In this document: one piece after another, positions 1 to 46,600 of the stretch | Layout: each line of letters begins with the position of its first letter | Position numbering within the stretch: position 1 is the stretch's first letter | DNA from: Bacteroidota bacterium | GTDB lineage: Bacteria > Bacteroidota > Bacteroidia > Chitinophagales > Chitinophagaceae | DNA length: 64,000 nt | Direction: 5' to 3' | Assembly (NCBI GenBank): GCA_947451115.1 | Contig: CANFXV010000004.1 | Span: forward strand, 1 to 64,000 | Made by a program: the position numbers and the translations under genes | The notes under the pieces: model-generated | The model's database searches: none | The model's input: the letters and a program-made list of their open reading frames with translations, nothing else | What the model was told of the DNA's origin: nothing

Positions 1-9
1 AGGGGGGCG

Positions 10-266
10 AGAAGGAACAAAAATGGCGAATAGCCATAGTTTCCATGCCCAAAACCAAATGGCTGCGCCATTTTAACGTCTTACTTCAAATCTTGCGCAT
101 TAAAGCAAGCTTTTTCTTCTGCCCTCAAATGGCTGCGCCATTTTAAATGCCTCGTTCGCATCAAAATCGAAGCAAGCTTCATTTTGTTGCTCCCTCTGCA
201 TTTGCTCACTCCGTTCGCTCTTGGGCATTAAAAAAGGGGCTTTTTAGCCCCTTTTTTGTTCCTTCT
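10..266. repeat. Hairpin-rich element with 14-bp inverted-repeat ends
   Basis: The outermost arms AGAAGGAACAAAAA (10-23) and its exact complement (253-266) bound a 257-bp non-coding stretch. Further inverted pairs are nested inside: ATGCCCAA 45-52 with TTGGGCAT 221-228, and CAAATG 56-61 with CATTTG 199-204. Local hairpins with an ATGGC/GCCAT core lie at 23-37, 57-73 and 127-143, and a 21-bp sequence at 56-76 is repeated exactly at 126-146. No convincing ORF lies inside. It abuts the 3' end of tRNA-Ser. It could be a MITE-like non-autonomous element or a structured RNA; which of these is inference. The window starts only 9 bases upstream, so the left context is unknown. Confidence 0.55.
230..257 (-). 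terminator. Rho-independent terminator after tRNA-Ser
   Basis: AAAAAAGGGGC (230-240), a six-base loop, and GCCCCTTTTTT (247-257) form an 11-bp stem with A and T tracts on both sides, so it can work in both directions. On the minus strand it lies just after the tRNA-Ser gene. It may also serve a gene left of the window. Confidence 0.75.
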
Positions 267-267
267 G

Positions 268-352
268 CGGAGAGTTAGGGATTCGAACCCCAGGACCTGT
301 TACAGTCAACAGTTTTCAAGACTGCCGCATTCGACCGCTCTGCCAACTCTCC
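268..352 (-). tRNA. tRNA-Ser (anticodon TGA)
   Basis: On the minus strand the sequence opens GGAGAGT and closes ACTCTCC, giving a perfect 7-bp acceptor stem. The anticodon loop carries TGA between complementary arms. The long variable arm and the GGTTCGAATCC T-arm are typical of serine tRNAs. The discriminator is G and no full CCA is encoded. It reads UCN serine codons, mainly UCA. Confidence 0.93.
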
Positions 353-2886: not shown

Positions 2887-3375
2887 TTATAATTTTTTAA
2901 GCATCCAGATATCACAGCCGCAGTGGCCGCTATTGCCCATGGCTTGAGTCAATCTTTCAAATCCCACATTTTCATAGATAGCGACTGCCTTGGAAAGTTC
3001 GGGCATGGATTCTAAATATACTTGCGTGTATCCATTCTCTTTTGCCCATTGCATGGATTGTAACAATAATTTTTTACCTAGTCCTGTGCCTCTTGCTGTA
3101 TTGCTTAAGTACAATTTAACCAATTCACAAGTGCCTGTTGGTAAGCCTTCGGTAGGAAAAATACCACAGCCGCCCACGATGGTTCCATCAATTTCAGCAA
3201 TATAATAAACGGATCCTTCTGTTTGAAATAATTCAAATAAATGATCGGTGGTGGGATCGTAATAAACAGTGCCAGGTTTATTGGCGCCAAATTCTGTTAA
3301 TGCTGCACGAATCACTGCTGCAATGGCTACATTGTCTTTTAATTCAATATTTCTTATCGTAATAGTGGAGGCCAT
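2887..3375 (-). CDS. GNAT family N-acetyltransferase
   Basis: 162 residues with a GNAT fold. The acetyl-CoA pyrophosphate loop reads R95-G-T-G-L-G-K101 (the R/Q-x-x-G-x-G/A motif), followed by a helix. The C-terminal motif AIYENVGFE (132-140) is also typical. These enzymes move an acetyl group from acetyl-CoA to an amine; the substrate is not predictable. It is the last gene of a minus-strand run ltaE-pgi-GNAT, with only 5 bases between it and pgi, so it is probably in their operon. Confidence 0.85.
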   Translation of the reverse strand: MASTITIRNIELKDNVAIAAVIRAALTEFGANKPGTVYYDPTTDHLFELFQTEGSVYYIAEIDGTIVGGCGIFPTEGLPTGTCELVKLYLSNTARGTGLGKKLLLQSMQWAKENGYTQVYLESMPELSKAVAIYENVGFERLTQAMGNSGHCGCDIWMLKKL

Positions 3376-3380
3376 TTAAA

Positions 3381-5036
3381 TTATTTTTTCCAATTTTTAT
3401 ATTGGTTGATCAATCCATTGGTAGAACTATCGTGTCCGCTGACAGGTTGGTTGTTCACAAGTTCTGGTAAAATTTTATTGGCTAATTGCTTGCCTAATTC
3501 TACACCCCATTGGTCATAACTAAATATATTCCAAATTACGCCTTGCGTAAATATTTTGTGTTCGTAACAAGCAATTAAAAATCCTAAGGTATTTGGTGTA
3601 ATTTTTTTGATTAAAAAAGAATTGGTGGGTTTGTTTCCTGCAAATATTTTAAAGGGCGCAAGGAATTCAATTTCTTTTTCAGATTTTTTATTGGCTTTTA
3701 ATTCGGCGGTCACCTCGGCTTGTGTTTTACCATTCAATAAGGCTTCGGTTTGTGCAAAATAATTGCTCAACAATTTATCATGATGATCACCGATAGGGTT
3801 GTGACTGATCGCAGGTGCGATAAAATCACAAGGAATCACCAAGGTGCCTTGATGTATTAATTGATAAAAAGCATGTTGACCATTGGTGCCTGGCTCTCCC
3901 CAAATTACAGGACCAGTGCTATAATTCACAGCTGTTCCATTGCGGTCGATATATTTACCATTGCTTTCCATATTTCCTTGTTGGAAATAGGCTGCAAAAC
4001 GATGCATGTATTGATCATAGGGCAAGATGGCTTCCGATTGTGCACCAAAGAAATTGGTGTACCAAATGCCTAATAAAGCCATGACCACAGGTATATTTTT
4101 TTCGAATTTTTCTGTTTTAAAATGTTGGTCTGCTTGGTGTGCACCTTTCAATAAGGCTTCAAAATTTTCATAGCCAATGGTCAATGCGATAGACAAGCCA
4201 ATCGCACTCCATAAAGAATATCTACCACCCACCCAATCCCAAAACTCAAACATATTTTTACTGCTAATGCCAAATGCATTCACTGCTTTTTCATTGGTGC
4301 TTAAGGCCACAAAATGAGTAGCAATATGTTTTTCATCTACCGCATTTTCTAAAAACCAAGTTCTTGCCGTATGGGCATTGGTCATGGTTTCTTGCGTAGT
4401 AAAAGTTTTAGAGGCAATTAAGAATAAAGTTTCTTCTGCATTAATTTTTTTCAAAGTTTCTGCAATATGCGTACCATCTACATTGCTCACAAAATAAACT
4501 TGAATACCTTCTACCCAATAAGGTTTTAAGGCTTCAGTGACCATTACAGGACCCAAATCAGATCCACCTATACCAATATTTACAATAGTTTTAATTTTCT
4601 TTCCTGTATACCCTTTATGCTCGCCACTATGGATGGCATTACAAAAGGTTTTCATTTGTTGTTGAACTCTTTGAATTTCAGGCAATATATTTTCTCCATC
4701 CACTAAAATAGAACTAGCAGTAAAATCGCGCAGTGCGGTATGAAGTACGGCTCTGTTTTCTGTTTCATTGATGGCCTTTCCTTCGAACTGCGCTTTAATT
4801 GCTTTTTCTAGCCCACATTCTTTGGCCAATTGTAATAACAATTGTAAAGTTTTTTCGGTGATAATATTTTTGGAGTAATCAAATAATATATCGCTAGTGG
4901 CTATAGAATATTGATCAAATCTTGTTGGATCCGCAGCAAACAAATCTTTCATTTGCTTGCGATTCATCTCTTCTTCGAAATGCTTTTTTAATACGAACCA
5001 GGCCTGTGTGGATGTTGGGTTAATTCTTTCTAACAT
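3381..5036 (-). CDS. pgi: Glucose-6-phosphate isomerase
   Basis: 551 residues, close to the E. coli enzyme (549). It interconverts glucose-6-phosphate and fructose-6-phosphate in glycolysis and gluconeogenesis in the cytoplasm. The PGI signatures are visible: [16 protein letters not shown] near residue 269, the catalytic Glu in [10 protein letters not shown] near 357, the His in [13 protein letters not shown] near 385, and the catalytic Lys in [10 protein letters not shown] near 519. The gene begins 16 bases after ltaE on the same strand and overlaps nothing. Confidence 0.96.
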
Positions 5037-44733: not shown

Positions 44734-46062
44734 TTATTTCTTAGCGCCTCTTGAAATAGGCTTACCATATTTTTTTTGCATGATCTCTTTTCGATTTTTG
44801 CGCACATTGACTTTGCTATTTTTTGCAGACTTTTCATGAAACGACGCACCTACTTCTTCTTTTTTAGGAAGTTTGATTTGAATGATCTTCATGCGCACTT
44901 TAGGCTTCTCGTCTTCTGTCAATACATCAGAAATCTCCAAAGTTTCAGGCAAGTCCAACATAGGAATGGGTTGCTTCATTAATTCCTCAATGGCTTTTTG
45001 CAAAGGTTTTTCTTTCTCTGTGATAAAAGTAATCGCAATTCCTTTTTTATCCGCTCTACCGGTTCTTCCAATTCGGTGAATATAATTCTCTGGCACATCC
45101 GGCGTATCAAAATTAATTACATGGGTTACTTCTGCAACATCAATACCTCTGGCCATTACATCGGTGGCAATAATATATTTATATACCCCTGCTTTAAATT
45201 GTTTCACCGTATTAAAACGATGATTTTGTTCTTTGTTAGAATGGATCACGCCTACTATCTCAGGAAATTTTGTTTCTAATTGTTCATACAATTGATCGGC
45301 CAAAGCCTTGGTGGCAGCGAATATTAAGACCTTGGTCATGGCTTCGTTGGCGCTCAATAACAGTTCTAATAAATTAACTTTTGTATTAAAATTAGGCACA
45401 GAATAAGCAGTTTGAATAATATTTTCCAAAGGAGTTCCAGTGGGTGCTGCTTCTACACGTACCGGTGCACTAAAATATTCATTCATCAATTTTTCAACTT
45501 CTTCGGTGATGGTGGCAGAGAAAAGTAAGTTTTGTCTTTTGGCTGGAAGCAATTCTAAAATATTGGTAATTTGTTTTCTAAAACCTAGGTTTAACATTTC
45601 ATCCATTTCATCTATCACTAATTTTTTGATCGTCTTTGTTTTAAACGCACCATTCATAGCAAGGTCAAATAACCTACCTGGTGTGGAAACCAAAACGTCT
45701 ACTCCTTTTTCTAATTCTAATTGTTGAGTATTGATATTTACGCCTCCATAAACACCAACAGTTACCACACTCATGTAAGGGGTTAGTTTTTTTGCTGCTT
45801 CGACAACTTGTACGACCAACTCTCTAGTAGGGACTAAAATTAATATTTGAGGATCTTTGCTTTTGTCAAATTTCCATTGTCTCAGACAGGGCAATAGGTA
45901 GGCAAAAGTTTTTCCAGTTCCGGTTTGTGCAATGCCGCATACATCTCTACCCGACATCACAATGGGGAAAACACGGTGTTGTATCGTGGTTGGTTTTGTA
46001 AATCCTAATTCCTCCACTGCGCGCAGTAAGGGGGTGTTGATATTTAAATCTTGAAAGGTCAT
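44734..46062 (-). CDS. DEAD-box-type ATP-dependent RNA helicase
   Basis: 442 residues. Motif I is A45-QTGTGKT52. Motif II reads DEMD (VIDEMDEMLNLGF near 150) instead of DEAD; motif III is SAT near 182, and motif VI is HRIGRTGR. The C-terminal tail is basic (KKEEVGASFHEKSAKNSK and on), like RhlE/CsdA-type helicases that act on rRNA or cold-stiffened mRNA. A TACCTTCG element lies 17 bases before the start. The array of hairpin repeats begins 41 bases upstream. Confidence 0.92.
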   Translation of the reverse strand: MTFQDLNINTPLLRAVEELGFTKPTTIQHRVFPIVMSGRDVCGIAQTGTGKTFAYLLPCLRQWKFDKSKDPQILILVPTRELVVQVVEAAKKLTPYMSVVTVGVYGGVNINTQQLELEKGVDVLVSTPGRLFDLAMNGAFKTKTIKKLVIDEMDEMLNLGFRKQITNILELLPAKRQNLLFSATITEEVEKLMNEYFSAPVRVEAAPTGTPLENIIQTAYSVPNFNTKVNLLELLLSANEAMTKVLIFAATKALADQLYEQLETKFPEIVGVIHSNKEQNHRFNTVKQFKAGVYKYIIATDVMARGIDVAEVTHVINFDTPDVPENYIHRIGRTGRADKKGIAITFITEKEKPLQKAIEELMKQPIPMLDLPETLEISDVLTEDEKPKVRMKIIQIKLPKKEEVGASFHEKSAKNSKVNVRKNRKEIMQKKYGKPISRGAKK

Positions 46063-46103: not shown

Positions 46104-46381
46104 GGTAAAAAGGATGGCCGTCGCTTTGCTCCGGCATCCTCTATACCCTAGTTTTTCAAACAAAGTAAAGAGGATTACCTCACTTCGTTCGGTGATCCTA
46201 CCTACCCTTGTTTTTCAAACAAATTAAAGAGGATTACCTCACTTCGTTCGGTGATCCTACAAACCCTATTTTTATAGAATTAAAAAGGATGGCCGTCGCT
46301 TTGCTCCGGCATCCTCTATACCCTAGTTTTTCAAACAAAGTAAAGAGGATTACCTCACTTCGTTCGGTGATCCTCTTTACC
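46104..46381. repeat. Array of alternating hairpin repeats
   Basis: A 94-bp sequence at 46106-46199 is repeated exactly at 46281-46374, with a shorter near-copy between (46201-46258). Each full unit holds hairpin type 1 (GGATGGCCG ... CGGCATCC) and type 2 (GGATTACC ... GGTGATCC), joined by a T/A-rich linker, so the order is 1-2-2-1-2. The ends, GGTAAAAAGGAT (46104-46115) and ATCCTCTTTACC (46370-46381), are inverted copies with one mismatch. Every type-2 hairpin contains CTCACTTCGTTCG. It lies between the DEAD-box gene and tRNA-Pro. No supported ORF lies inside. Confidence 0.8.
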
Positions 46382-46406
46382 CTCAGTGCAAAAGCATAAA
46401 AACAGT

Positions 46407-46428
46407 AGCCCGCTTCGCGGGCTTTTTG
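46407..46428 (+). terminator. Terminator-like hairpin
   Basis: AGCCCGC, TTC, GCGGGCT then TTTTTG. A strong short stem just after the hairpin array. Confidence 0.6.
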
Positions 46429-46473
46429 TTATTTCACTTATTCGCTATTCCAAGCGAGCTTGAATAGCTCAAT

Positions 46474-46508
46474 CGTAAAATAACAAAGCCATCTCTAATC
46501 GAGATGGC
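46474..46508 (-). terminator. Terminator downstream of tRNA-Pro
   Basis: On the minus strand GCCATCTC and GAGATGGC pair around five bases, followed by TTTGTTATTTT, 16 bases after the encoded CCA end of tRNA-Pro. Confidence 0.7.
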
Positions 46509-46523
46509 TGCTGTTTTCTTTTT

Positions 46524-46600
46524 TGGTCGGGTGAACAGGATTTGAACCTGCGACCACACGCCCCCCAGACGTGTACGCTACCGGACTGCGCTACCACCCG
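46524..46600 (-). tRNA. tRNA-Pro (anticodon GGG)
   Basis: 77 bases on the minus strand. The acceptor stem is CGGGTGG with TCACCCG, then ACCA, so the CCA end is encoded. The anticodon stem CACGT/GCGTG frames the loop CTGGGGG, giving GGG. The T-arm contains GGTTCAAATCC. It reads CCC and CCU codons. Confidence 0.92.

What the first reader, a model, noticed from the sequence alone, without database searches (positions are those of the whole stretch)
46104..46381. Array of alternating hairpins with an exact 94-bp direct repeat
Two hairpin types alternate as 1-2-2-1-2 over 278 bp with near-identical linkers, and the outer ends are inverted copies. The 94-bp exact repeat implies recent duplication or gene conversion. 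The pattern recalls REP/BIME repeats, but the source family is unknown.
Basis: partly seen in the sequence, partly recalled or inferred. Interest (0 to 1): 0.6.

Follow-up and report, generated by a model that had tools for sequence, protein, structure and literature searches.

The report
Gene-less tRNA-end mini-element with hairpins
The hairpin array is the far end of a short, gene-less, strongly folded DNA element that sits directly behind certain tRNA genes in Bacteroidota bacteria and that, in relatives, can be caught as an insertion between duplicated tRNA ends.

Summary
In detail: five hairpins (1-2-2-1-2) and an exact 94-bp repeat, 46106-46199 = 46281-46374. The REP/BIME reading is only partly right: the hairpins are not dispersed and not linked to RAYT transposases. 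They lie 3' of tRNA genes, on the tRNA strand: in 119 stretches from a capped scan of species genomes, 141 of 176 hairpins are within 1 kb of a tRNA, 141 of 141 on its strand. Here the array ends a 177-bp unit behind tRNA-Pro(GGG), a four-way junction plus hairpin; 26 of 42 stem pairs show two-sided compensatory change in 19 units of the genus. In Christiangramia such a unit (160 bp) lies between perfect 18-bp copies of the tRNA 3' end, and another species has the empty site. Nine of 233 hairpins are followed directly by a displaced tRNA 3' end (0.25 expected). I read it as a gene-less integrative mini-element at tRNA 3' ends, most like a cis-mobilizable element but far smaller and with conserved folding. 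Shown in relatives: location, structure, insertion. Inferred: that the window copy arrived this way, and which recombinase moves it. No displaced tRNA end survives in the window.

The parts
46524..46600 (-). tRNA-Pro(GGG); its 3' end ATCCTGTTCACCCGACCA (46524-46541) would be the integration core by analogy with relatives
   Evidence: ARAGORN; Rfam; core position
46347..46523 (-). unit from tRNA end to first hairpin (177 bp): four-way junction plus type-2 hairpin; sense strand = tRNA strand
   Evidence: fold of the own trailer; covariation in 19 genus units; homologous unit behind tRNA-Gln (L138)
46511..46515 (-). P1 stem, 5' strand AACAG (pairs with 46401-46405)
   Evidence: A1 columns 9-13/142-146; letters checked
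46486..46510 (-). arm 1: terminator-like hairpin of the tRNA
   Evidence: A1 columns 14-38
46427..46485 (-). arm 2: long bulged palindrome with apex CAAGCTCGCTTG
   Evidence: A1 columns 39-99
46406..46424 (-). arm 3: short hairpin with GCCCGCGAAGCGGGC
   Evidence: A1 columns 102-141
46401..46405 (-). P1 stem, 3' strand CTGTT
46347..46373 (-). hairpin T2 (GGATCACCGAACGAAGTGAGGTAATCC), first after the tRNA
46287..46314 (-). hairpin T1 (GGATGCCGGAGCAAAGCGACGGCCATCC)
46231..46257 (-). hairpin T2
46172..46198 (-). hairpin T2
46112..46139 (-). hairpin T1, last of the array
46106..46199 (.). first copy of the exact 94-bp repeat
46281..46374 (.). second copy of the exact 94-bp repeat

Best explanation
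The array is the outer end of a gene-less integrative mini-element at the 3' end of tRNA-Pro. The unit is 160 bp in the cleanest relative and 177 bp here up to the first hairpin. It starts right behind the tRNA, supplies the tRNA with a terminator, folds as a four-way junction and ends in a hairpin that usually has a C.A mismatch or a bulge in its stem, two G.A steps and a GNA-type triloop. SHOWN in relatives: location behind tRNAs on the tRNA strand; structure kept by compensatory change; a unit between direct repeats of the tRNA 3' end; an empty site in another species; homologous units behind different tRNA isotypes; units in tandem with tyrosine-recombinase islands that use the same tRNA end. 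INFERRED: the unit enters by site-specific recombination between its end hairpin (ends in AATCC) and the tRNA T-arm (AATCC + 3' end), by a tyrosine recombinase supplied in trans (island-borne or host), or hitchhikes by accretion with islands; folding of the tRNA-sense strand serves recognition, perhaps as single-stranded DNA. In the window the end hairpin has been multiplied in tandem, most recently by the 94-bp duplication, and the displaced tRNA end has decayed.
For: Location: 141 of 176 exact T2 hairpins in 119 scan stretches lie within 1 kb of a tRNA, 141/141 on the tRNA strand; of the 35 others 26 have under 1 kb of upstream sequence held. Of the 9 remaining, six are at island junctions: L073 (2), L098, L121 and L165 (2) lie behind a tRNA 3' fragment, with a recombinase ORF between tRNA or stretch start and hairpin (Pfam for L073, L098, L121, the L165 ORF by resemblance only). 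Structure: 26/42 pairs with two-sided change, 94.7% of cells paired against 79.0% shuffled and at most 47.6% slid; across the phylum P1 strands pair with their own partner (run of 7 or more in 50 of 53 loci, 8.4% across loci, 0 of 2000 permutations; some loci are close relatives). Insertion: L270 unit of 160 bp between perfect 18-bp repeats, followed by the terminator and flank that directly follow tRNA-Pro in the unit-less G565/L279 (91% over 46 nt, 85% over 245 nt); L161 unit between 20-bp repeats with one mismatch, and 166/170 identical behind tRNA-Pro TGG and GGG. Displaced tRNA ends of 10/12 or more after 9 of 233 hairpins (8 loci), 0.25 expected from shuffles. In 24 Christiangramia genomes the L076 unit is found in 6; in 17 others the tRNA-Pro loci shown have a plain terminator, an island end or another tandem family, and 1 had no match. 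Homologous units: own tRNA-Leu against a relative's tRNA-Arg, 75% over 171 columns; window tRNA-Pro against tRNA-Gln, 68% over 193.
Against: No displaced tRNA end is recognisable after the window array (6/12, as by chance), and 224 of 233 hairpins in the scan set lack one of 10/12 or better. In the genus the tRNA-Pro unit is found in many genomes at the same place, and the Flavobacteriia tRNA-Tyr unit keeps its place in at least eight named genera, so most copies look vertically inherited. No recombinase was tied to the unit; the island ends that I read at the same tRNA core lack the hairpin. L270's unit is bounded on its left by an island end, not by the intact tRNA, and the empty site is in another species. 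The mismatch is not absolute: C.A in 18 of 25 T2-type hairpins of the genus, paired in 3, and inner pairs are complementary in only 3 of 5 Christiangramia hairpins. A 170-bp double-stranded circle would be strained (inference).
Confidence: 0.6

Rival explanations
1. A native, non-mobile tRNA trailer structure: terminator plus structured RNA or cruciform that insulates strongly transcribed tRNA genes or aids processing; arrays are replication slippage.
For: Arm 1 reads as an intrinsic terminator directly behind the tRNA (by reading); 1x1 mismatches on the tRNA strand are 17 G.T against 4 A.C (14:4 after removing near-duplicates; 16:4 and 13:4 when the other strand is folded), which favours pairing of the tRNA-sense strand; long conservation of place at tRNA-Tyr and tRNA-Pro.
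Against: Few tRNAs per genome carry the hairpin: 2 of 25 in 23 own tRNA loci, 2 of 51 counted in 30 of 38 tRNA loci of a complete Bacteroidales genome (overlapping loci count some tRNAs twice); a unit between tRNA-end repeats with an empty site; homologous units behind different isotypes; arm 1 would end transcription before the rest is made (inference).
Confidence: 0.22
2. A cis-mobilizable element in the strict sense: the shrunken relic of a larger integrative element that lost its genes but kept its two ends.
For: Tandem order with islands at one tRNA core (L269, L270, L165, own C19) is the accretion pattern described for CIMEs (passage of PMC5704250); L096 has a 2.7-kb stretch with ORFs between two hairpins.
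Against: A similar compact architecture recurs across the phylum and behind several tRNA isotypes, so the unit itself is what is kept; I came across no larger element with both ends and an integrase, though no survey for one was made.
Confidence: 0.12
3. REP/BIME repeats moved by a RAYT (Y1 HUH) transposase.
For: Size, imperfect palindrome, tandem types; two of the five window hairpins happen to read GTAG across their foot.
Against: No PF01797 match in the own genome; 13 of 29 hairpin-bearing genomes have none; no hairpin near any of 30 Y1 loci examined, of 46; GTAG or CGTC at the foot of 0 of 176 scan hairpins; not dispersed.
Confidence: 0.03
4. Assembly artefact of the metagenome bin.
For: Exact 94-bp repeat in a fragmented bin.
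Against: Such hairpins in tandem at the same tRNA in other genomes and in named isolates and a complete genome.
Confidence: 0.02

Closest known systems
CIME (cis-mobilizable element) and site-specific accretion at tRNA genes
   Same: No integration genes, lies between copies of the target-gene end, stacks with integrase islands at one tRNA core (definition in a passage of PMC5704250).
   Different: Only about 160-180 bp, no genes at all, conserved folded architecture across a phylum; origin by decay of a larger element not shown.
tRNA-borne genomic islands (tyrosine integrase islands)
   Same: Target is the tRNA 3' end from ATCC of the T-arm; displaced tRNA fragment at the far side; the tRNA end is restored.
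   Different: No integrase, no cargo; its outer end is the hairpin, which the island ends that I read at the same core lack.
REP/BIME and RAYT
   Same: 20-40 bp imperfect palindromes, tandem, two types.
   Different: At tRNA 3' sides, single orientation, no RAYT link, no GTAG/CGTC foot in 176 scan hairpins.
Integron attC sites
   Same: Analogy only: a folded single strand with mismatched or bulged bases could be the recognised form.
   Different: The T2 ends GGATCACC/GGTAATCC do not read as RYYYAAC/GTTRRRY (motif recalled, comparison by eye); no integron integrase was sought.

Membership tests
REP/BIME | short imperfect palindrome | tested here: met
REP/BIME | many copies dispersed in intergenic DNA of one genome | tested here: not met
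   own genome (89% complete): 3 places in all, each at a tRNA or tRNA fragment
REP/BIME | cognate RAYT gene, flanked by the repeat | tested here: not met
   (30 of 46 Y1 matches examined)
REP/BIME | GTAG or CGTC tag at the foot (PMC3733652: title, abstract start, passages) | tested here: not met
   0 of 176 scan T2 hairpins; 2 of the 5 window hairpins read GTAG across the foot
CIME | flanked by copies of the target (attL/attR-like) | tested here: met
   met in relatives L270, L161, L096, L090; not recognisable in the window
CIME | no integrase or transfer genes of its own | tested here: met
   160 bp in L270, 177 bp here: no room for a gene
CIME | derived by decay from an ICE/IME | tested here: inconclusive
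   no parent element seen and none systematically sought; compact architecture recurs across the phylum
CIME | excision or mobilization by an adjacent element | not testable with these tools
   needs experiment
tRNA genomic island | integrase gene inside | tested here: not met
Known structured RNA family | match in Rfam 15 | tested here: not met
   window at gathering score: two tRNAs only; 8 related loci at E up to 0.5: 12 tRNA matches and five sub-threshold matches to other families, of which BjrC68 (L096) and Leu_leader (L117) overlap the tRNA/unit
Integron attC | R''/R' core motifs | not tested
   only compared by eye with a recalled motif; no attC search run

The most novel reading that the evidence does not exclude
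Bacteroidota carry a family of gene-less, 100-180-bp integrative elements that insert at tRNA T-arms as folded single-stranded DNA: the tRNA-sense strand folds into a four-way junction plus a GNA-capped end hairpin, a tyrosine recombinase supplied in trans joins the end hairpin to the tRNA, and each insertion gives the tRNA a new 3' end and terminator. They would be among the smallest integrative elements known and an integron-like principle outside integrons.
Probability: 0.28. Interest if true: 0.85.

Novelty: new variant of a known kind. Interest (0 to 1): 0.62.

Why it matters
tRNA and tmRNA genes are the usual landing sites of bacterial islands (abstract start of PMC4383910, listing). A conserved, folded, gene-less unit that uses the same sites in a whole phylum would change how tRNA trailers, island junctions and hairpin repeats are annotated, and gives a concrete test of whether folded single-stranded DNA is a substrate for recombination at tRNA genes. 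It may also contribute to contig breaks at such sites in metagenome bins.

Tried and rejected
REP/RAYT: rejected. Known RNA family: none at gathering score, only weak matches elsewhere. Phage-borne: 0 exact T2 matches in IMG/VR. CRISPR-like array: considered because of 27-28-nt units with 29-32-nt linkers; rejected because linkers resemble each other and unit lengths vary from 33 to about 160 bp between loci. A target-site duplication at every unit: rejected; a first test found only two loci (L090, L096) with 12 nt or more of the tRNA end after a hairpin, the anchored test 9 of 233 hairpins. A link between the bases after T2 and the cognate tRNA T-stem rests mainly on three loci with full matches; I do not use it beyond them. 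Literal T2 is a poor marker of the family: with one mismatch it is in 2 of 391 other genomes of a phylum sample, because stem sequences vary. A plain MAFFT alignment of 35 phylum-wide units recovered in its consensus only arm 1, the arm-2 apex and the hairpin; the covariation claim therefore rests on the 19 genus units (one small predicted hairpin and the end hairpin left out of the count; L217 and the other trailers without a parsed hairpin were not in the alignment) and on the P1 test. The RNA-parameter repeat gave the same counts as the DNA run, so it is no independent check. The shape detector also finds 33 hairpins outside 400-nt trailers in 532 kb of the 80 listed scan loci and 3 in the complete Bacteroidales genome; I did not sort them (some loci have no tRNA in view, and arrays run past 400 nt). 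Early counts used the 80 listed of 119 scan stretches; one search repeats location and displaced-end counts on all 119. The scan preset the loop to GNA and the mismatch to C.A; the counts without that preset are (49 genus hairpins: triloop GNA 40, AAA 7, other 2; inner pairs complementary in 49, one of them with G.T).

Literature: ten searches. None of the papers in their lists, several of which were cut at 8-20 entries, was seen to describe tRNA-trailer hairpin units in Bacteroidota; only open-licence PMC papers are held, so absence is weak. Seen as passages only: PMC5217627 (a palindrome about 10 bp behind tRNAs in Methanopyrus, not this), PMC6006769, PMC3733652, PMC5704250, PMC6479982 (its reference list has the titles of Yoshizawa 1997 and Hirao 1994 on very stable DNA minihairpins; those two not read). 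Abstract starts in a search listing only: PMC1762012 (phage integrating in a tRNA T-loop), PMC4383910.

Full report
OBSERVATION. The window is the first 64 kb of contig C4 of a 2.12-Mb, 59-contig, 89%-complete bin. Four contigs of its genus sample have the same lengths as public contigs (193,015; 586,252; 50,970; 42,283 bases) titled Sediminibacterium sp., Bacteroidetes, Chitinophagia and Chitinophaga pinensis MAGs; I take the genus to be Sediminibacterium or close to it, which is tentative. The five hairpins and the exact 94-bp repeat are there, far beyond shuffles (longest 11 bp; fold z -6.3 and -8.0).

SURROUNDINGS. Read on the tRNA strand the order is tRNA, 150 bp of structured DNA, then hairpins T2-T1-T2-T2-T1. 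Beyond is a gene on the same strand (44734-46062; a DEAD-box helicase by my reading of the translation).

RELATIVES. The array sequence matches 31 of 100 genomes searched, the own genome counted: 30 of 61 of the genus and 1 of 39 from elsewhere in the order. Of 21 matched loci fetched there besides the window's own, 17 have a tRNA at most 400 nt upstream on the hairpin strand; L002 has a tRNA 3' fragment instead, and L006, L010 and L016 have no intact tRNA in view. In all 119: 176 exact hairpins, 141 within 1 kb of a tRNA, all 141 on its strand, 126 on its 3' side and 15 on the 5' side of the nearest tRNA; 26 others have under 1 kb upstream held. The nine remaining: L073 (two), L098, L121, L165 (two), and distal copies in L096, L106 and L160. 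L073, L098, L121 and L165 sit behind a tRNA 3' fragment that starts at ATCC of the T-arm, with a tyrosine-recombinase-like ORF upstream (Pfam for L098, L121, L073; the L165 ORF by resemblance of its N-terminus to that of L121). The own genome has the same arrangement on C19 (recombinase 2927-4390: Arm-DNA-bind_5 over its cut-off, Phage_integrase under it). tRNAs concerned are Pro, Ser, Arg, Tyr, Met, Val, Gln and Leu.

STRUCTURE. From tRNA end to hairpin the unit folds as P1 closing three arms (terminator-like hairpin, long bulged palindrome with an AAGCTTGCTT-like apex, short hairpin), then a linker, then the end hairpin; Flavobacteriia tRNA-Tyr units are simpler, with one long palindrome (not every predicted fold shows all parts). 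In 19 genus units 26 of 42 pairs change on both sides, 121 cells, 94.7% paired, none of 500 shuffles as high on any measure, slid controls at most 47.6% (alignment, structure, with one small predicted hairpin dropped before counting). Across the phylum P1 strands fit their own partner (50 of 53 loci, against 8.4% across loci). The end hairpin keeps its core GA-xy-RNA-zw-GA while stems change between genomes (GGATCACC, GGATGCCG, GGATAAAGC and others). In 49 genus hairpins found without presetting the loop, inner pairs are complementary in 49 and the triloop is GNA in 40 and AAA in 7; the stem mismatch is C.A in 18 of 25 T2-type ones. DNA hairpins with GNA triloops are reported to be very stable (Yoshizawa 1997 and Hirao 1994, titles and a passage in PMC6479982). 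With the G.T over A.C bias on the tRNA strand (17:4; 14:4 without near-duplicates) this points to folding of the tRNA-sense strand, as RNA or single-stranded DNA. I favour DNA because arm 1 is a terminator in front of the rest; this is inference.

SPORADIC PRESENCE. The shape detector finds the end hairpin behind 2 of 25 tRNAs in 23 own-genome tRNA loci: 6 hairpins on the tRNA strand, none on the other, none in 51 kb elsewhere. In 30 of 38 tRNA loci of a complete Bacteroidales genome it is behind 2 of 51 tRNAs counted (overlapping loci count some twice), with 3 further hits outside the 400-nt trailers. In the 80 listed scan loci: 66 of 127 tRNAs, 81 hairpins on the tRNA strand, 0 on the other, 33 elsewhere in 532 kb, not sorted further. 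By eye, four more own trailers (Leu, Ser, Ser, Gln) fold in a related way.

INSERTION. Among 24 Christiangramia genomes the L076 unit is found in six, in one of them (G557) cut off within its hairpin; in 17 others the tRNA-Pro loci shown (one or two each) have a plain terminator, an island end or the second tandem family instead; one had no match. In G574 (L270) the unit is 160 bp between two perfect copies of ATCCTGCCACCCCGACCA; what follows the second copy is what follows the tRNA directly in G565 (L279): 91% over 46 nt, then 85% over 245 nt. In G560 (L269) the unit lies between two tRNA ends, the second followed by a left end resembling that of islands in other species. In L161 units behind tRNA-Pro TGG and GGG are 166/170 identical, the second between 20-bp repeats with one mismatch. 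In the scan set 9 of 233 hairpins, in 8 loci, are followed at the exact ATCC junction by 10 or more of 12 bases of a tRNA 3' end, 0.25 expected from shuffles. Units behind different isotypes are homologous over their length: own tRNA-Leu against a relative's tRNA-Arg (75%, E 5.5e-25), window tRNA-Pro against a tRNA-Gln unit (68%, E 7e-11).

MECHANISM. I conclude that the unit is, or descends from, a gene-less integrative element specific for tRNA 3' ends, with the hairpin as its outer end; the hairpin ends in the same AATCC as the tRNA T-arm, which would be the crossover. Which recombinase acts is unknown; islands at the same core are candidates, but the island ends that I read lack the hairpin. 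In the window the displaced tRNA end is gone and the end hairpin was multiplied, last by the 94-bp duplication; tandem multiplication occurs at the same kind of site in relatives, with unit lengths of 41, 112, 122 and 159 bp. Much of the history is vertical: the best match to tRNA plus trailer spans 147 or more query bases in 25 of 88 matching genomes by my count of the list; the others match less, mostly the tRNA only, and some of these carry a diverged unit.

COMPARISON AND NOVELTY. It works most like a CIME stacked with islands at a tRNA (definition seen in a passage of PMC5704250) but is far smaller, gene-less and structurally conserved; it fails the REP tests. My ten literature searches listed no description, in a library limited to open-licence PMC papers and with cut lists.

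Noticed in passing
L281 (G571), tandem copies of the tRNA-Pro 3' end 91-93 bp apart; similar in L273, L292, L267: A second, simpler gene-less tandem unit: tRNA 3' end + terminator + hairpin GGTTCTCCCGATGTTTCGGGA, five 91-93-bp units behind tRNA-Pro.
   Followed up: partly
window 1-352: The 3' flank of tRNA-Ser(TGA) also folds as a multi-arm structure with a second AAGCTTGCTT arm, cut by the contig start (L042).
   Followed up: partly
L198 (G000:C19) 2927-4800: An island junction in the own genome: tyrosine recombinase, tRNA-Pro fragment and the same kind of trailer with T1/T2-like hairpins.
   Followed up: partly
L121, L165, L275, L276, L285, L286, L288: Islands in tRNA-Pro; L275, L276, L285, L286 and L288 share a left end like that of L121; L121 and L165 carry ORFs beginning MPxxTTFSVLFFVRK; repeats like TTTGGTGAATCATTCGGTGAA lie near both L121 ends.
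   Followed up: no
L096 3118-5901: About 2.7 kb with HxlR-like and SDR-like genes (by reading) between two T2 hairpins behind tRNA-Pro of Olivibacter domesticus, the tRNA end repeated after each hairpin, degenerate after the second.
   Followed up: partly
L081: A 6.5-kb contig titled Deltaproteobacteria carries T2 followed by a tRNA-Pro-like 3' end and a terminator; possibly misbinned Bacteroidota.
   Followed up: no
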